Positions 9,099 to 26,293 of a stretch of DNA of 35,951 bases are shown here, piece after piece. The first letter of the stretch is position 1, and the number at the start of each line of letters is the position of its first letter. The DNA comes from an uncultured Pseudomonadota bacterium (GTDB lineage Bacteria; Pseudomonadota; Alphaproteobacteria; UBA9219): the NCBI GenBank assembly GCA_903824505.1, contig CAIJXG010000037.1, positions 1 to 35,951 of the forward strand, read 5' to 3'. Made by a program: the position numbers and the translations under genes. The notes beneath the pieces were generated by a model. It was not told the origin of the DNA and did no database searches. It saw nothing but the letters and a program-made list of their open reading frames with translations.

Positions 9099-9805
9099 CG
9101 CACGACCTTGAGGATCAAGATTAAGGCTAAAACCGGAAAGGAATCCCCCCAGATATACTCGGGCTCCTTCGGAACCCTCACGTTTTGTCCGCGCAAAAGG
9201 CGCATCAGCTTCGCTGAGCGCGTGTTTTGCACGGAGCAGAATACTCGGCTTTCCAAGGAAACCGAGTATAGAGAAAAAGACGGGCGCGAGGGGGAACTCT
9301 CTTCCGATTTTAGCCTAAGGTCACCCTTATCACAAAAAAGACCGAGTCAACATCCCTGAGAGAAGGGATAAAGCGATACAGTGAAATGACAGAATATGAC
9401 GCAAAAACAGCCGTCACCGTCTGAAACCAACCCAACTGCGCTTTCGAAAAAAACACAATCTCTTCAACATCATCAAGCCCACAGAGCTGCCCCACAAACA
9501 ACACAAACAAAATCTCTGGCAAAATCTCTGGCAATGGGTGCACAACCCGAAACGGCAGACGAGGACCGGGTACATCCTCCATCCATGCCGTGCAAATTTC
9601 TTCCGTTGCTTGCTTTTTCTCCATCTTCGCCTCCCTGCTTGTTGTTGCGAGGCTTATGGAGAATCATACCTTTTGTTAATCTCACGAATCCTTCCGCTTT
9701 CCAAGGAAACCGAGTATAAATGATGAAAACACCCTGCACATAATCTTTGACAGACTTTCGGCGCTCCGATAGGGTTCAAAATCACCTTCTTTTTATGCGC
9801 TTTTC
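9099..9805. other. 0.7-kb repeat-rich gap upstream of mlaE, no convincing gene
   Basis: A 29-base near-palindrome spans 9241-9269 (arms atactcgg and ccgagtat). Its right part recurs as a 23-base direct repeat at 9248-9270 and 9696-9718 (ttccaaggaaaccgagtata shared). The segment 9379-9416 repeats 6453-6490. A short tandem of caaaatctctgg lies near 9510-9535. A minus-strand frame at 9310-9624 starts 5 bases after a GGGAGG site, but it runs through the shared repeat and resembles no family I know, so I do not call it a gene. Confidence 0.7.
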
Positions 9806-13518: not shown

Positions 13519-14187
13519 ATGACAGATCCTAACGCTTCTCTTCTCCAAGAAATTCAGGAAGACCTGAACCGCCAGAGGCTCCAAGCCTTTTGGACGCGGT
13601 ATGGGATCGGACTTGGCGCCGTTGCTTTGGCCCTTGTTGTGGCAACGGCGGGGGTGAGCGTTTGGCATGGACAGAAGCTTAAAAACGAGCAACGCCTGAC
13701 AACCGATCTTCTGACAACGGCAAAGTCTGAGAGCGCATCGGCCGCATCTCTCGATGCGCTGGCCGCTTTTGCGTCTAAGCCCGAGAACATAGCCTCAACC
13801 CAAGCCGCCATTGCCTTACTTCAGGCAGGCGCGATGGCGGTTGAGCAGAATGATGTCCCCAAGGCGGTTCGGCTTTTTGACCAAGTCGCCCAAAACCCCA
13901 AGACAGACTCTGCCTTTCGGCAATTGGGGGATTTGCTCTCGGTGCAAGCCCAATTGGATTGGGGCGATGCCGCTGCTTTATCCTTGCGTTTACAGCCCTT
14001 AACGCTTGAGGGCAGACCGTGGCGTTTTTCCGCATTAGAGGCACAGGGATATTTGGCTTTGCGCATGGGCGATGCCGAACGCGCCAAACAGATTTTCCGC
14101 GATTTGTCCCAAGACGCCCGTGTTCCCTCCACGATGGGCGCGCGCGCGACCGATATTTTGCACGGCTTAAAAGGAGCGGGCGGATGA
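13519..14187 (+). CDS. YfgM-like membrane-anchored tetratricopeptide protein
   Basis: The product starts at ATG 13519 (MTDPNASLLQEIQEDLNRQR) and has about 222 residues. It has a short cytoplasmic head, one membrane anchor near residues 28-47 (YGIGLGAVALALVVATAGVS), and a periplasmic helical region with degenerate TPR repeats. The repeats are clearest at AVRLFDQVAQNPKTDSAFRQ and LALRMGDAERAKQIFRDL. Proteins of this architecture precede bamB in many alphaproteobacteria and resemble YfgM, which interacts with periplasmic chaperones. Here it overlaps bamB by 4 bases (ATGA), so the two are translationally coupled. The function is inferred from architecture and neighbour only. Confidence 0.8.
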   Translation: MTDPNASLLQEIQEDLNRQRLQAFWTRYGIGLGAVALALVVATAGVSVWHGQKLKNEQRLTTDLLTTAKSESASAASLDALAAFASKPENIASTQAAIALLQAGAMAVEQNDVPKAVRLFDQVAQNPKTDSAFRQLGDLLSVQAQLDWGDAAALSLRLQPLTLEGRPWRFSALEAQGYLALRMGDAERAKQIFRDLSQDARVPSTMGARATDILHGLKGAGG

Positions 14188-15503
14188 CACGGCACGCCTC
14201 TTGGCTTCTTGTTGCGTCCCTTTTGTTCCTTGCGGCATGCAGTGATTCGGCTAACAAAATCGGCTCGACTCTCAAAGGGGATCGAGTCCCCGCCATCCAA
14301 GCTACCCATGAAATCCAGCCGGATTCGGCCCTGAAAGACTCAAAGCCTTTGCTGCCACCTTCTGTGGTGACCCAATCTTGGCCTCAAGCAGGGTATGACA
14401 CCCTTCATGTGCTGCCCGCGTTGGACGCCGCTTCCTCTCCCCATCTTTTGTGGCGCGACTCCATCGGGGCTGGGTCTGGGTCGGATCAGAAGCTTCTCGC
14501 TTCGCCAGTCGCAGGGCGCGAGTCTATCTATGCGATGGATGCCAAGGGCGTTGTCTCGGCACTCGATCTTGAAACCGGACACAAGAAATGGACGTTTGAT
14601 ACGACTCCTAAAGAGCGCGATGATCCCGCGATGGGGGGCGGTTTGGCGCTGGACGGTCCTACGCTTTTTGCAACAACGGGCTTTGGCGAGGTTCTGGCCA
14701 TAGATGCCGGAACAGGGGTTTTAAAATGGCGCAAAGCCCTTCTGAACCCCTTGCGTGCTGCGCCAACGGTCGCGGAGGGCCGCGTCTATGCCCTGAGCAT
14801 CGCAAATGATCTGAATGCGCTGGACGCGGAAACGGGTGAGATTTTGTGGCATCAGGCGGGGGCGAGCGAGAGCGCGACTTTGATGGGGGCCTCAAGTCCT
14901 GCTGTCATTGAGGATACTGTCATTGCTGCCTACAATTCCGGTGAAATTTTTGCGCTGCGCGCTCAAAATGGACGGGCCTTATGGAATTATATGTTGGCCG
15001 CACCGGCTTCCGTCGGCGCGTTGCCTGCGATTGCGGATATCAGAGGCCTTCCGGTTGTTGATCGCGGTGCCGTCTATGCCATTAGTCATAGCGGCCGGAT
15101 CGCGGCGATTGACCAACGCACGGGCGAACGTTTGTGGGAATCCGATATTGGCGGCATCAACACGCCTGTTTTGGCCGAAGACGCTCTTTTCCTTTATGGG
15201 GGCGATCATCAGCTTATGGCGCTTGCGCGCGTGAATGGCCGCGTGATGTGGATCCGGTCTTTGGATAAACGTGAAAAACCCGAGGAGCCAGATTCTGACC
15301 CCTTAGTTTGGACAGGACCTCTTTTGGCCCATGATCGGCTCTGGATGGTGAATTCGGCTGGATTTCTCATCGCTTTTTCGCCCGATGACGGTGCGCCGCT
15401 TGAGCGGATCGAGTTGGGTTCCCCGGCTTACCTCTCACCTATTCTTGTCAACAAGACCCTTTACATTCTGACGGATGAGGGGAAACTTGTGGCCCTCAGG
15501 TAA
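14184..15503 (+). CDS. bamB: BamB-like outer-membrane assembly lipoprotein (PQQ-type beta-propeller)
   Basis: BamB is the beta-propeller lipoprotein of the BAM complex that assembles outer-membrane proteins. The ATG at 14184 overlaps the preceding stop and has AAGGAG 8 bases upstream. The 439-residue product begins with a lipoprotein signal and lipobox LAAC (Cys19). Repeated propeller blades follow, each with the AxDxxTGxxxW pattern: ALDLETGHKKW, AIDAGTGVLKW, ALDAETGEILW and AIDQRTGERLW. In many alphaproteobacteria the next gene is der; here kdpC follows after 24 bases. The longer open frame upstream of 14184 is the TPR gene read in another frame. Confidence 0.9.
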   Translation: MTRHASWLLVASLLFLAACSDSANKIGSTLKGDRVPAIQATHEIQPDSALKDSKPLLPPSVVTQSWPQAGYDTLHVLPALDAASSPHLLWRDSIGAGSGSDQKLLASPVAGRESIYAMDAKGVVSALDLETGHKKWTFDTTPKERDDPAMGGGLALDGPTLFATTGFGEVLAIDAGTGVLKWRKALLNPLRAAPTVAEGRVYALSIANDLNALDAETGEILWHQAGASESATLMGASSPAVIEDTVIAAYNSGEIFALRAQNGRALWNYMLAAPASVGALPAIADIRGLPVVDRGAVYAISHSGRIAAIDQRTGERLWESDIGGINTPVLAEDALFLYGGDHQLMALARVNGRVMWIRSLDKREKPEEPDSDPLVWTGPLLAHDRLWMVNSAGFLIAFSPDDGAPLERIELGSPAYLSPILVNKTLYILTDEGKLVALR

Positions 15504-15527: not shown

Positions 15528-16109
15528 ATGTTTTCCCATCTCCGCGCCTCGTTCGCTCTCCTTTTGTTCTTGTCTTTGGTAACGGGGGCGCTTTATCCGG
15601 CCGTCGTGACCGCCGTTGGTCATTCGTTTTTTCCCGAGAAATCCGACGGAAGTCTTGTGATGAAAGACGGTCATGTGCTGGGATCCGAATGGATCGGGCA
15701 AAATTTTACAACAGACCTCTATTTTCATCCGCGTCCGTCCGCGGCGGGCAGCGGTTATGATGCGACAAATTCCTCGGGCAGCAATCTGGCCCCTACGGCC
15801 CCCGACCTTGTGCGCACCATCACGCAACGTGTCGAGGAACTGCGCGTAACAAACGCGACGGACAAGATCCCTGTCGATTTGGTTACAACGTCCGGCAGTG
15901 GGCTCGATCCCGATCTGTCGGTGGATTCTGCTTTTTTTCAAATCAAGCGGGTAGCGGCGGCGCGGCAAATGGATGAACACGCGCTGCGCAATCTTGTTAT
16001 GGATCTGACAACACAGCGCAGCTTTGGGATTCTGGGCCAAGATCACGTGAATGTGTTAAAGCTCAATCTCGCGCTTGACGGGATCGCGCCGCGCGCTTCC
16101 GCCCCATGA
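15528..16109 (+). CDS. kdpC: KdpC, small subunit of the Kdp potassium-transporting ATPase
   Basis: KdpC is the single-span subunit that supports nucleotide binding by the KdpFABC potassium pump. The 193-residue product has an N-terminal membrane segment (about residues 8-28) and the full set of family blocks: SLVTGALYPAVVTA, HVLGSEWIGQNF, the RPSAAGSGYDATNSSGSNLAP block, TSGSGLDPDLS and HVNVLKLNLALD. All look intact. AAGG lies about 9 bases before the ATG. It overlaps kdpD by 4 bases. No kdpA, kdpB or kdpF precedes it; bamB lies 24 bases upstream, so KdpC would need a pump encoded elsewhere or is a remnant. Confidence 0.94.
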   Translation: MFSHLRASFALLLFLSLVTGALYPAVVTAVGHSFFPEKSDGSLVMKDGHVLGSEWIGQNFTTDLYFHPRPSAAGSGYDATNSSGSNLAPTAPDLVRTITQRVEELRVTNATDKIPVDLVTTSGSGLDPDLSVDSAFFQIKRVAAARQMDEHALRNLVMDLTTQRSFGILGQDHVNVLKLNLALDGIAPRASAP

Positions 16110-18811
16110 ACGAAGCAAATCGCCCCTCGCCGGACGCTTTGCTGGCAGAGGCCAAGCAGGAACAACGCGGTCGGTTAAAAGTCTTTCTGGGGGCCGCGCC
16201 GGGTGTCGGAAAAACTTATGCGATGTTGGGCGCGGCCCAAACAAGGGTTGCAGAAGGCGTTGATGCGGTCATCGGTATTGTAGAAACCCATCGCCGACAG
16301 GAGACGGAAAATCTCGCAGAAGGGATTGAGATCATCCCAAGGCAAAAAATCGATTATCGAGGACTTCCCTTTGAGGAAATGGATCTGGATGCGATTTTAC
16401 GGCGCAAACCCGCTTTAGTTCTGGTCGATGAGCTGGCGCATACTAATGTCCCGGGCGTGCGTCATGCCAAGCGATACCAAGATGTGCAAGAACTGCTGGA
16501 AAACGGCATCGATGTCTATACGACTTTGAACGTCCAGCATATCGAAAGCCTGAACGATATTGTCACGCGCATTACAGGCGTGACGGTGCGCGAGACCGTG
16601 CCGGATTCCATCGTGCGAAACGCCCAAGCGATCGAGTTGATCGATTTGCCTCCGGAAGAGCTTCTCCAACGCCTAAAAAACGGAAAAGTCTATATTCCCG
16701 AGCAAGCGCGTTTAGCGGTCAATCGTTTCTTTTCGCCGGGCAATCTGACTGCTTTGCGTGAACTGGCTCTCCGTCAAGCTGCCGACCGCGTGGACGAGCA
16801 AATGACGAGCTATATGCGCCGTCACGCGATTACGGGACCTTGGCCGACCAGCAATCGGGTCATGGTGTGCGTCTCGGATGATGGGCAAGCAGCGGCTTTG
16901 GTTCGGGCAGCGCAGCGCAACGCCGAACGGCGGCAAGCCCCTTGGCTTGTTTTGTATATCGAAACGAGCCGTCACCGCCTTATGAGCGCTGCCGCGCGGA
17001 ACGACATTGCGCAGGCGATGCAAATCGCAACCCATATGGGCGCGGAAACACTCACGACAGCAAACGAAGACGCGGCCGTCGAGATTCTGCGCGTCGCTCG
17101 GGAACACAATGTCACCACGATTGTGATTGGCAAAACGCTCCGCTCGGCCTTGTCGCGAGCCTTCAGACCATCAGTGTCTTCCGCTGTGATTGAACAAGCC
17201 GACGGTTTTGATGTGCTGCTTGTGAATAACCGCGAGACTCTGCGCCCCCCCCCGGGGAGTGAATCCCGAAAGCTTCAAGGGGCCCCTGAGAAAAAGCCCC
17301 TGCGGGTTTTATGGCCAAGTTATGCCACGGCCGGACTTGTCATGATCTGCGCGACTCTGATCGTTTGGGGGCTTCAGTTTCTTGGTCTGGCAGCGTTTTT
17401 TCCTTTTCTTTATATGATTACCTTTCTTGGAATCGTCGTTGATTTTGGGGTGGGGCCGTCTCTTTTTGCCATCCTTGTGTCCGCCGTGACGTTCGATGCG
17501 CTGCTGACCGCCGGAACGCCTTTTCTTATTCCCCAAAGGCAAGAGGATTGGCAGCTTCTGATTCTGGTGCCCCTTTTCGGATTCTTCGTGACGTTGATTG
17601 GCGAAAGGCTGCATCGGCGCATTGCCATCCTGCGCACCAATGCTGAACGCACCCAATCTTTGTATGATTTCACAAAAAGTGTCGCGGCTGCCGCAAACAT
17701 TACCGACATTGCGCAAGCAACTGTTCGGCGGATCGCAACGGCTTTGGGCGTACGCACCCTTCTGCTTCTTCCCCATCACGAAAGGTTAGAGACGGCAGCT
17801 GCGGTTCCGGCGGATTTACGCCTCGATGTTGCCTCGGCGGCGGCAATGGATTGGGTCTGGACGCATAAAAAACCGGCAGGCTGGCGGTCCGAGACTTTGC
17901 CAAGCGCGAGCTTTTATGGGCTTCCGCTTCAATCGGGGGGGAAGATGATCGGCGTTTTGGCTCTCCGCGCGGAAGATCAGGGGTCTCTTTCGCTGGAACA
18001 AGAGCGTTTTCTCGCGAGTCTCGCGGCACAGGCGGCAACCTCGATTGAACGAGCGCAGCTGGTCACGGATATCACGCAAGCGCGGCTGCAAACAGAGGCG
18101 GAAAAACTCCGCACGAGCCTTCTCTCCTCGACCAGTCGCAATTTGCGGGAGCCGCTAGATGCGATTCTTCAGGCTCTTGGCAGGCTGAAGCAGGATGCGC
18201 CGGACTCGTCCCCCGAGATCCGACATCAACAGCTTGATCTTCTGACCAGCGAGGCGCACCGGCTCGACCGCTTTATTGAAAATTTCTTGGATATGACCGA
18301 GATCGTCACAGGGAATATCCGCCTGACAGTCCAGCCTGTGGCGCTGAAACCTTTGATTGAGGAAGCGCTGGGGCGTCTGGGTGCCGTGACGAAAGGCAAG
18401 ACCATCCAATTTGATTGTCCCGATGATTTACCCCTTCTTTCGGGCGATCCCAAAGCGCTGCGCAGCGTTTTTGTGAATCTGATCGAAAATGCGTGTCTTT
18501 ACGCGCCTGCCTCTGAGCCTATTACCCTGAAGGCTGAACGGCGCGGGACTTCCGTACGCGTGACTCTCACAGATCGAGGAATTGGCATTCCGGAAGCCGA
18601 GCGAGAGCGGGTTTTTGATATGTTCTACCGGATCAAACAAGGCGCGGCGGACAGCGCATCCGGGCGCGGAGCCGGCGGGACGGGACTAGGTCTGTCCATT
18701 TGCAGGGGCTTTGTCGAGGCGCATCACGGCCGCATCTTCGCACGCGCAGGCACAGACGGAATTGGGACAAGCATTACAGTTGTTCTGCCGATCGAAAAAA
18801 GTTCAGCCTGA
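16106..18811 (+). CDS. kdpD: KdpD-like sensor protein with a substituted phosphoacceptor site
   Basis: The 901-residue product has the complete KdpD layout: an N-terminal KdpD domain with Walker A GAAPGVGKTYAM (residues 29-40) and ELAHTNVPG near 111, a universal-stress-like domain near 250-370, a DUF4118 membrane block near 397-500, a GAF-like region near 520-650, and a C-terminal HATPase with N-box NLIENACLYAP near 790, G1 DRGIGIP near 824 and G2 GTGLGLSI near 860. In the dimerisation helix the normal S-H-D-L-R-T-P-L reads S-R-N-L-R-E-P-L. The phosphoacceptor histidine is therefore Arg678 (codon CGC at 18137-18139). Autophosphorylation is not expected. No kdpE follows. A run of nine C lies near 17245-17253. 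Confidence 0.92.
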   Translation: MNEANRPSPDALLAEAKQEQRGRLKVFLGAAPGVGKTYAMLGAAQTRVAEGVDAVIGIVETHRRQETENLAEGIEIIPRQKIDYRGLPFEEMDLDAILRRKPALVLVDELAHTNVPGVRHAKRYQDVQELLENGIDVYTTLNVQHIESLNDIVTRITGVTVRETVPDSIVRNAQAIELIDLPPEELLQRLKNGKVYIPEQARLAVNRFFSPGNLTALRELALRQAADRVDEQMTSYMRRHAITGPWPTSNRVMVCVSDDGQAAALVRAAQRNAERRQAPWLVLYIETSRHRLMSAAARNDIAQAMQIATHMGAETLTTANEDAAVEILRVAREHNVTTIVIGKTLRSALSRAFRPSVSSAVIEQADGFDVLLVNNRETLRPPPGSESRKLQGAPEKKPLRVLWPSYATAGLVMICATLIVWGLQFLGLAAFFPFLYMITFLGIVVDFGVGPSLFAILVSAVTFDALLTAGTPFLIPQRQEDWQLLILVPLFGFFVTLIGERLHRRIAILRTNAERTQSLYDFTKSVAAAANITDIAQATVRRIATALGVRTLLLLPHHERLETAAAVPADLRLDVASAAAMDWVWTHKKPAGWRSETLPSASFYGLPLQSGGKMIGVLALRAEDQGSLSLEQERFLASLAAQAATSIERAQLVTDITQARLQTEAEKLRTSLLSSTSRNLREPLDAILQALGRLKQDAPDSSPEIRHQQLDLLTSEAHRLDRFIENFLDMTEIVTGNIRLTVQPVALKPLIEEALGRLGAVTKGKTIQFDCPDDLPLLSGDPKALRSVFVNLIENACLYAPASEPITLKAERRGTSVRVTLTDRGIGIPEAERERVFDMFYRIKQGAADSASGRGAGGTGLGLSICRGFVEAHHGRIFARAGTDGIGTSITVVLPIEKSSA

Positions 18812-18873: not shown

Positions 18874-18967
18874 GGGAGGTCGGCATGGACGGGTCCGATG
18901 CCAATCCGGTCAGGGTCGAAAGGCAGCAGCCGTAACATTTTTGATCCGGGTCGCTGTCCGGTCTCCC
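18874..18967 (+). ncRNA. ffs: 4.5S signal recognition particle RNA
   Basis: The central hairpin ggtcagggtcgaaaggcagc with the following agcc is the conserved SRP domain IV that binds Ffh, including the GNAR-type tetraloop and the asymmetric AGCAGCC loop. The outer stem pairs GGGAG (18874-18878) with CTCCC (18963-18967). A TATAAG box lies at 18862-18867 and a TTGACT at 18834-18839, but their 22-base spacing is long. A T-rich run (tttcttttttg) follows the 3' arm. The ends are estimates to within a few bases. Confidence 0.92.
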
Positions 18968-18991
18968 ACTTTCTTTTTTGTGTGACAGAAC

Positions 18992-24849: not shown

Positions 24850-25277
24850 CTTTGGCGGATGCTCAGAAGTTAGCCGCGCTGCATCAGGTCAGTTTTGCGG
24901 AAAGCGCATGGACGGCAGCGCAAATTGCCGGCAGCCTTGTCCAACCCTCAACGCGCGGCTGGGTAAGCGAAGAAGAAGGGCGACCCGTCGCTTTTATTTT
25001 GTTTCAAATCACCCAAGACGAGGCCGAAATCCTAACTTTTTGCGTTGCGCCTACGCATCGACGCAAAGGTCTGGGCGCGACGCTTTTAGAAACAGCCTTC
25101 GGGCAGATGAATACCGGCCGTATCTTTCTAGAGGTCGCCGCTGATAACGTCGCCGCCGTGCGGCTTTACGAAAAAGCCGGATTCCGCCTCAACGGGCGGC
25201 GCAAAGCCTATTATCCTCATGGGACAGGGGCAGTTGATGCCGTGATGCTTGTTTGGAAGAGGTCCAATCGCGCTTAA
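24831..25277 (+). CDS. rimI: GNAT acetyltransferase, RimI-like
   Basis: The 148-residue product is a GNAT-fold N-acetyltransferase. Motif A is ILTFCVAPTHRRKGLGATLLE near residues 66-86, with the R-x2-G-x-G acetyl-CoA pyrophosphate loop. Motif B includes IFLEVAADNVAAVRLYEKAGF near 98-118 and ends with GRRKAYYPHGTG. This EVxxxNxxAxxLYEKxGF wording is typical of RimI, which acetylates the N-terminus of ribosomal protein S18. It overlaps dnaQ by 19 bases. The usual neighbour tsaB is absent, so the exact substrate is not assured by context. It converges on the DotB-like gene with a 4-base overlap. Confidence 0.86.
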   Translation: METRLITLADAQKLAALHQVSFAESAWTAAQIAGSLVQPSTRGWVSEEEGRPVAFILFQITQDEAEILTFCVAPTHRRKGLGATLLETAFGQMNTGRIFLEVAADNVAAVRLYEKAGFRLNGRRKAYYPHGTGAVDAVMLVWKRSNRA

Positions 25278-26293
25278 AACTTCTTCCCCGAGATAGGATC
25301 AAGGCCTTTTTGAAGATTGAGCCGCGCGATTTGTTTGTCGATATAGCTGTTGATCATGCCAATTTTGTTTTCGCGGATCAGGGCGCGGATCGGATCGCCG
25401 TTATTGTTTTCTTCGGTGAACACATAGCGAAGATAGGGGCCTGAGGCGTTCAGCGTTTGATGCCATGCCGCCGTTAACCCTTGCGCCAACATAAAGGCCG
25501 CCGCCCCGCCAATCGCCTGATCTGCCAGATGGATCAATCCCATTAGACTTTCCTCAACGGATCCGGCATGGATGGTAGTCATCACCAAATGGCCTGTCGT
25601 GGCGGCTCTTAGAATTTGCTCGGCCGCGCGAGGGCTACGTACCTCGCCGACAAAAAGATAGCGCGGAGTCCAGCGCAAGGCGCGTTTCAAGGGGGTCGCC
25701 CAATCCTCCTCATTCTCTTGATCCACTTGAATCTGATAGCAATAGCCATATTCGCCGACAGCCCCGTCCAACATATACTCGACAGGATCCTCGACCGTAA
25801 TAGCAACGCCGCCATAGCGGCGAAGATAATCGGCCAATAAGGCGAAAGAGGTGGTGGTCTTCCCATGCCCCGTAGGCCCTGAGATCAAAATCAACCCGTC
25901 GCGGCGGCCAAAACGCTGAAGCGGATCCAGCAAATGAGGGGAAATGGACAAATCTTCAAGATTCGGCACGACGTTGTTAATACGCCGCAAAATGACCCAT
26001 CCTTGTCCGTTTGCCGTACGTTGATAGGAATGCCGAAACCGCATCCCGTCATATTCAAAAGAGGAATCGGGATGGGTAAGAGTCTTAAGCAACGCCTCGC
26101 CAAGCTGATCGGCCTCCGCGCGGTAGACGGGCGGCAAAACGCGGCTCCAATTATTGCTGATGTCGCGCCCGGGGGATCGATACCGCGCCATGCCTTTGCC
26201 GCCGGCATCCAAACGAATATACAGATCCATAAAGGGGAGATCGCGCAGCCGCGTCCCTGTTGCCTCTGTCCCCTGAAGATTAAGCGGTTTCAT
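25274..26293 (-). CDS. dotB: DotB-like type IVB secretion ATPase, downstream paralogue
   Basis: The 339-residue product is a PilT/VirB11-superfamily hexameric ATPase resembling DotB, which energises the Dot/Icm channel from the cytoplasm. Walker A is GPTGHGKTT (residues 139-147), the Asp box is VEDPVEY (167-173), the Walker B-like strand is FVGEVR (214-219), and the His box is TGHLVMTTIHAG (233-244). After GEVR the usual D is S. An N-terminal PAS-like region precedes these. It overlaps the preceding paralogue by 4 bases, so the two are coupled. A conjugative TraJ-type or type IV pilus ATPase is the alternative, but the linked icm genes favour DotB. Confidence 0.86.
   Translation of the reverse strand: MKPLNLQGTEATGTRLRDLPFMDLYIRLDAGGKGMARYRSPGRDISNNWSRVLPPVYRAEADQLGEALLKTLTHPDSSFEYDGMRFRHSYQRTANGQGWVILRRINNVVPNLEDLSISPHLLDPLQRFGRRDGLILISGPTGHGKTTTSFALLADYLRRYGGVAITVEDPVEYMLDGAVGEYGYCYQIQVDQENEEDWATPLKRALRWTPRYLFVGEVRSPRAAEQILRAATTGHLVMTTIHAGSVEESLMGLIHLADQAIGGAAAFMLAQGLTAAWHQTLNASGPYLRYVFTEENNNGDPIRALIRENKIGMINSYIDKQIARLNLQKGLDPISGKKF

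What the first reader, a model, noticed from the sequence alone, without database searches (positions are those of the whole stretch)
18137..18139. KdpD has arginine in place of its phosphoacceptor histidine
The H-box reads S-R-N-L-R-E-P-L where KdpD has S-H-D-L-R-T-P-L. The codon is CGC at 18137, one base from CAC. The ATP-binding N, G1 and G2 boxes and the N-terminal Walker A remain. Together with the missing kdpE this points to a sensor that no longer signals by phosphotransfer and may act through its N-terminal nucleotide-binding domain or as a phosphatase-like or scaffold protein.
Basis: partly seen in the sequence, partly recalled or inferred. Interest (0 to 1): 0.7.

Follow-up and report, generated by a model that had tools for sequence, protein, structure and literature searches.

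The report
KdpD without its signalling histidine
This bacterium and its relatives carry a potassium-sensor protein that has lost the histidine and the partner gene it needs for classical signalling but keeps intact the front part that in E. coli switches the potassium pump off directly, so it probably survives as a stand-alone brake on the pump.

Summary
KdpD (window 16106-18811) has Arg678 (CGC, 18137-18139) where the phosphoacceptor His belongs. It is not a sequencing slip: all six kdpD-bearing genomes of this lineage lack the His (five Arg, one Tyr). A same-family genome has Tyr, and other alphaproteobacterial KdpDs have Arg, Lys, Gln or Asp. The adjacent phosphatase residue (H+4 Thr) is lost too, which argues against the 'phosphatase-like' reading. 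No kdpE exists in this 98% complete genome; the best hit is CtrA-like. In 66 full-length KdpDs scored for both traits, 50 have His plus adjacent kdpE, 7 His without, 9 neither, and none kdpE without His. The N-terminal Walker A/B domain is untouched: 80 of 80 conserved positions kept. In E. coli this domain is an atypical serine kinase that inactivates the pump at KdpB-Ser162, works in an H673A mutant and needs no KdpE (PMC11018627). KdpB keeps that Ser. Best explanation: a full-length KdpD reduced by point substitution to a serine-kinase off-switch for KdpFABC. Truncated HK-less KdpDs without KdpE are already published; new here are inactivation by point change, its recurrence, and a selectively kept CA nucleotide pocket (20 of 21 positions). 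Function is inferred, not tested.

The parts
16106..18811 (+). kdpD, full-length (901 aa): KdpD-NTD, Usp, four TM helices, GAF, DHp without His, CA
18137..18139 (+). codon CGC = Arg678 in place of the phosphoacceptor His (E. coli H673)
18149..18151 (+). codon GAG = Glu682 in place of the conserved H+4 Thr (phosphatase residue)
16163..16792 (+). KdpD N-terminal domain (PF02702), atypical serine kinase domain by homology; 80 of 80 conserved positions kept in the lineage
16190..16216 (+). Walker A GAAPGVGKT (residues 29-37)
16427..16432 (+). Walker B Asp108-Glu109 (E. coli D109/E110)
16853..17224 (+). Usp domain (residues 250-373)
17321..17632 (+). transmembrane (DUF4118) region, strongly diverged: 27.9 bits, just below the Pfam cut-off
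17699..18052 (+). GAF domain (residues 532-649)
18092..18325 (+). DHp (HisKA) helices without His; relaxed (58% identity within the lineage vs 77% in matched His-bearing pairs)
18407..18796 (+). CA (HATPase_c) domain with N, G1, F, G2 boxes intact; 20 of 21 conserved positions kept
15528..16109 (+). kdpC, overlapping the kdpD start by 4 bp
14184..15503 (+). bamB-like gene 24 bp upstream of kdpC (kdpAB are on another contig, C89); likely co-transcribed, inferred
18874..18970 (+). small SRP RNA (RF00169) downstream of kdpD, where kdpE would be expected

Best explanation
It is a KdpD whose histidine-kinase output has been switched off by point substitution after its response regulator was lost, and which is kept for its other, N-terminal activity: an atypical serine kinase (Walker A/B) that phosphorylates the KdpB A-domain Ser of TGES (E. 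coli S162) and shuts the KdpFABC pump when K+ is plentiful. Shown here: His replaced, phosphatase Thr replaced, kdpE absent, the mapped serine-kinase residues and the KdpB target Ser retained, and the lineage-wide pattern. Inferred by homology: that the N-terminal domain phosphorylates KdpB in this organism. Inferred: that pump expression no longer depends on K+ sensing (kdpCD lie directly behind bamB; no TrkH or Kup was found, so the pump may be needed all the time), leaving the post-translational brake as the control that matters. The CA domain probably still binds nucleotide, in a structural or allosteric role; this is inference.
For: (1) Literature: E. coli KdpD H673A and a DHp-CA deletion still phosphorylate KdpB S162, Walker A/B mutants do not, KdpE is not needed; KdpDs without HK domains go with absence of KdpE (PMC11018627). 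(2) The residues mapped there are present: G36/K37/T38, D109, E110, R190; W39 is Tyr/Phe here as in all 79 wider KdpDs; KdpB ITGES is kept in this genome and in the other His-less genomes where the motif was matched (G002, G006, G007, G009, G013, G023). (3) NTD conservation is 80/80 while DHp loses H, D(+1), T(+4), G689 and two more conserved positions. (4) kdpE absent genome-wide; no second DUF4118 kinase in the window genome. (5) His and kdpE in 66 full-length KdpDs: 50 both, 7 His only, 9 neither, 0 kdpE only; kdpE changes 8 times and His 4 times on the tree, consistent with kdpE going first. (6) No diadenylate cyclase, so the c-di-AMP input of short KdpDs is unlikely.
Against: No biochemistry on any member. 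The paired phylogenetic test is too small to be significant (median p 0.25 for full-length, 0.06 with truncated forms). The TM region, which is linked to K+ sensing, is very diverged (9 of 110 columns invariant in five congeners), so K+ control of the serine kinase is uncertain. If only the N-terminal half mattered, selective retention of the CA nucleotide pocket is unexplained. G001 and G006 carry a KdpE-like paralogue elsewhere (264 and 277 bits).
Confidence: 0.66

Rival explanations
1. Passive decay: once kdpE was lost, the whole histidine-kinase half drifts; the serine-kinase half is kept, and what remains of DHp-CA is slow-to-vanish baggage with no role.
For: DHp and TM are clearly relaxed; a decay series exists: His kept but +4 Thr changed (G018, G021, G022, G310), His lost with CA kept (this lineage), His and CA boxes both lost (L197), DHp-CA gone (G011, G138).
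Against: 20 of 21 conserved CA positions are kept in five species that share only about 61% of CA residues (P 3e-7 against the domain's own background); all six genomes of the lineage keep an open kdpD frame (in G001 split over two contigs).
Confidence: 0.22
2. DivL-like repurposed pseudokinase: the His-less DHp-CA binds a phosphorylated response regulator, or heterodimerises with another kinase, and feeds that signal into KdpD.
For: DivL of Caulobacter, also an alphaproteobacterium, has Tyr at this position and senses DivK~P (PMC4211667); Tyr is found here in G007 and G013; the DivL structure 4q20 is among the PDB matches.
Against: Response-regulator docking depends on the DHp surface, which is the relaxed part; the replacing residues differ (Arg, Tyr; Lys, Gln, Asp elsewhere); no partner is linked.
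Confidence: 0.07
3. KdpD is now a pure phosphatase, or remains a kinase using another residue.
For: ATP-binding boxes intact.
Against: The H+4 Thr, needed by HisKA phosphatases (general knowledge), is lost in all six aligned His-less relatives; no KdpE in this genome; no one conserved nucleophile replaces H678, since Arg and Tyr alternate.
Confidence: 0.03
4. Sequencing or assembly error.
For: CGC is one base from CAC.
Against: Five other genomes of the lineage with Arg or Tyr at the same site, codons CGC, CGA and TAT, and Tyr (TAC) in G013.
Confidence: 0.01

Closest known systems
E. coli KdpD, tandem serine-histidine kinase (PMC11018627)
   Same: Same domain order; serine-kinase residues G36 K37 T38 D109 E110 R190; kdpC next to it; KdpB ITGES target; CA boxes
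   Different: No phosphoacceptor His, no H+4 Thr, no kdpE; TM region strongly diverged; W39 is Tyr (as in most KdpDs)
HK-less KdpD versions (truncated DHp-CA in Campylobacterota and Archaea; short KdpD/Usp form of Deinococcus geothermalis; NCBIfam KdpD_non_kinase NF038185)
   Same: Serine-kinase domain kept, histidine kinase lost, KdpE absent
   Different: Here lost by point substitution inside a full-length protein with an intact CA pocket; NF038185 score 383 is below its cut-off of 550; no diadenylate cyclase, so not the c-di-AMP-controlled type
DivL of Caulobacter crescentus (PMC4211667)
   Same: Pseudo-histidine kinase with the His replaced (Tyr, as in G007 and G013) and the DHp-CA fold retained
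   Different: DivL is a DivK~P sensor in cell-cycle control; no link to a response regulator was found here, and the DHp surface is relaxed

Membership tests
KdpD (sensor of the Kdp system) | KdpD N-terminal domain PF02702 with Walker A/B | tested here: met
   2.8e-98, residues 20-229; residues aligned
KdpD (sensor of the Kdp system) | Genomic link to kdpC and presence of kdpA and kdpB | tested here: met
   kdpC overlaps kdpD; kdpAB on contig C89
KdpD (sensor of the Kdp system) | DUF4118 four-helix TM region | tested here: inconclusive
   27.9 bits vs cut-off 28.4; four helices in the model
Functional HisKA histidine kinase | Phosphoacceptor His in the H box | tested here: not met
   Arg678
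Functional HisKA histidine kinase | H+4 Thr/Asn for phosphatase activity | tested here: not met
   Glu682
Functional HisKA histidine kinase | N, G1, F, G2 boxes of the CA domain | tested here: met
KdpDE two-component system | kdpE in the genome | tested here: not met
   best hit 166 bits, CtrA-like by sequence, vs 333-355 for kdp-linked KdpE
KdpD atypical serine kinase | G36 K37 T38, D109, E110, R190 and KdpB E161-S162 | tested here: met
KdpD atypical serine kinase | Phosphorylation of the KdpB Ser | not testable with these tools
   needs biochemistry
NCBIfam KdpD_non_kinase (NF038185) | Score over the curated cut-off of 550 | tested here: not met
   383 bits
DivL-type pseudokinase | Binding of a phosphorylated response regulator | not testable with these tools
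   needs binding assays; no linked response regulator was found

The most novel reading that the evidence does not exclude
The dead histidine-kinase half has been converted into a nucleotide-responsive allosteric module: its conserved CA pocket binds ATP/ADP and gates the N-terminal serine kinase, so pump inhibition reports cellular energy as well as (or, given the decayed TM region, instead of) K+. That would be a histidine pseudokinase regulating a serine kinase within one chain.
Probability: 0.2. Interest if true: 0.72.

Novelty: new variant of a known kind. Interest (0 to 1): 0.5.

Why it matters
The 2024 report that KdpD is two kinases in one chain leaves open which activity selection values more and how the serine kinase is controlled. 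These proteins are natural separation-of-function versions: full-length, sensor domains present, histidine kinase inactivated by substitution. They support the view that pump inhibition is the more durable function, and they would be counted as intact histidine kinases by a survey based on domain presence, as the published one was. They also supply proteins in which serine-kinase control can be studied without histidine-kinase activity.

Tried and rejected
Sequencing error: rejected by independent genomes. A kdpE elsewhere in the genome: rejected by profile search; the best hit looks like CtrA. A separate KdpD-type histidine kinase as in Deinococcus or Anabaena: no second DUF4118 match in the window genome, and its other kinases match only the transmitter region. 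c-di-AMP control: no diadenylate cyclase. A riboswitch near kdp: none at Rfam thresholds in the loci searched. One shared His loss for genus g1 and G013 could be neither shown nor excluded (AU p 0.10). Phylogenetically independent pairs: too few for significance.

Full report
Observation. The window carries kdpC (15528-16109) and kdpD (16106-18811, 901 aa). The H box reads SRNLREPL with CGC at 18137-18139, residue 678. Pfam finds the KdpD N-terminal domain (2.8e-98), Usp, GAF, a weak HisKA below its cut-off, and HATPase_c.

Not an error. The order holds only 33 genomes, 18 of them with KdpD. In the window's genus, G001, G002, G006 and G009 have Arg and G007 has Tyr; same-family G013 has Tyr; codons are CGC, CGA, TAT, TAC. 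G012 and G019 (same family, another genus) have SHDLRTPL. G003 (same genus) has a distantly related, His-bearing kdpD (38% identity) with an adjacent kdpE. All 79 wider KdpDs fetched from public genomes have His.

kdpE. In relatives with His the kdpE gene follows kdpD directly (G012, G003, G031, G036, G046, G058). After the His-less kdpDs there is none in the window, G002, G007, G009 or G013; in G006 the contig ends. A KdpE profile search of whole genomes gave 333-355 bits for kdp-linked KdpE; a KdpE-like paralogue at 236-283 bits that G003 and G012 carry in addition to their kdp-linked one and that G001, G005, G006, G018 and G022 also carry; and only 166 bits in the window's genome, a protein that reads as CtrA. 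So KdpE was not found in a 98.5% complete assembly. No second DUF4118 kinase exists there either.

Class survey. Of 289 alphaproteobacterial genomes sampled, 55 have the KdpD domain over the cut-off. Reading 52 loci gave three more full-length His-less proteins: L209 (Arg, CA intact; sister to the window's clade, from an assembly with 10% contamination that also holds a second, kdpE-linked KdpD), L203 (Lys) and L197 (Gln, CA boxes lost), plus truncated forms; none of the three is followed by kdpE. In the order, G023 (Asp, degenerate box) and G011 (stop after GAF) are further cases. Counting full-length proteins with both traits known (66): His with kdpE 50, His without 7, neither 9, kdpE without His 0. 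The tree needs 4 changes of His and 8 of kdpE. Of the 7 His-bearing proteins without kdpE, 5 have already changed the +4 Thr (Gly, Lys, Lys, Ala, Ser). This suggests an order: kdpE goes first, then the phosphatase residue, then His. The strict pair test has too few pairs to be significant, and whether genus g1 and G013 lost His once or twice is unresolved.

What is kept. Among positions at least 95% conserved in His-bearing KdpDs, five His-less congeners keep 80 of 80 in the N-terminal domain, 9 of 10 in GAF, 12 of 18 in DHp, 20 of 21 in CA and 0 of 2 in the TM region. The three positions changed in all six aligned His-less proteins of the family are H678, T682 and G689. Against His-bearing pairs matched on N-terminal identity, DHp identity is 58% versus 77%, TM 35% versus 61%, CA 61% versus 70%; these controls come from other alphaproteobacterial lineages and some other phyla, so the comparison is approximate. 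The predicted structure has four TM helices, two DHp helices with residue 678 in the first, and a complete CA sandwich with a disordered lid (mean pLDDT 78.6, pTM 0.39, so domain arrangement is not informative).

Mechanism. In E. coli the KdpD N-terminal domain is an atypical serine kinase that phosphorylates KdpB S162 and inhibits KdpFABC at high K+. It works in H673A and in a DHp-CA deletion, needs Walker A, D109, E110 and W39/R190, and does not need KdpE. KdpDs lacking HK domains go with absence of KdpE (PMC11018627). These residues are present here (W39 is Tyr, as in most KdpDs), and KdpB keeps ITGES. The simplest reading is a KdpD reduced to the serine-kinase brake. No TrkH was found in the genus and no Kup in this genome, so KdpFABC may be the main K+ uptake route, which would make K+-dependent transcription dispensable (inference). 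kdpCD lie 24 bp behind bamB, and kdpAB sit on another contig, consistent with the loss of a dedicated kdp operon promoter (inference). No diadenylate cyclase was found, so control would have to come through the TM/GAF sensor or something else.

What stays open. If the histidine kinase is dead, why is the CA nucleotide pocket conserved? Either it is decaying slowly or it still acts as a nucleotide-dependent module. This is the most novel possibility and is testable. A precedent for a repurposed His-less kinase is DivL (PMC4211667), but no partner is evident here.

Verdict. The reading as a non-signalling sensor acting through its N-terminal domain is well supported by homology; the phosphatase reading is not. 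It is a new variant of a known kind: HK-less KdpDs are published as truncations, while full-length point-inactivated ones were not described in the papers read.

Noticed in passing
G000 contig C89 (L062:3683-9219) and window 15528-18811: The kdp operon is split in this genome: kdpA and kdpB lie on C89, separated by about 1.8 kb holding a 419-aa antisense ORF with no Pfam match, while kdpCD sit behind bamB. In the relatives whose loci were read, kdpABC and kdpD are contiguous. C89 ends about 220 bp after kdpB.
   Followed up: partly
window 9153-9287 and 9685-9718; L062:3410-3542: A roughly 135-bp repeat (90% identical) occurs in the window and just upstream of kdpA on another contig, with shorter copies near window 9245-9270 and 9692-9718; looks like a dispersed intergenic element.
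   Followed up: no
L067/L013 (G012 kdpD): The His-bearing kdpD of G012 has one in-frame TAG; its adjacent kdpE is intact.
   Followed up: no
G006:C94, G001:C15, G005:C56, G012:C10, G003:C1, G018:C27, G022:C167: A second KdpE-like regulator (236-283 bits) not linked to kdp; in G006 it lies near a KdpD-like kinase fragment with SHDLKTPL.
   Followed up: partly
whole genomes G000, G002, G007: No TrkH/KtrB or Kup found at Pfam level, so KdpFABC may be their only recognisable bulk K+ importer.
   Followed up: partly
window 25274-26293 (-): ORF resembling a DotB/PilT-type secretion ATPase, judged by reading the translation only.
   Followed up: no
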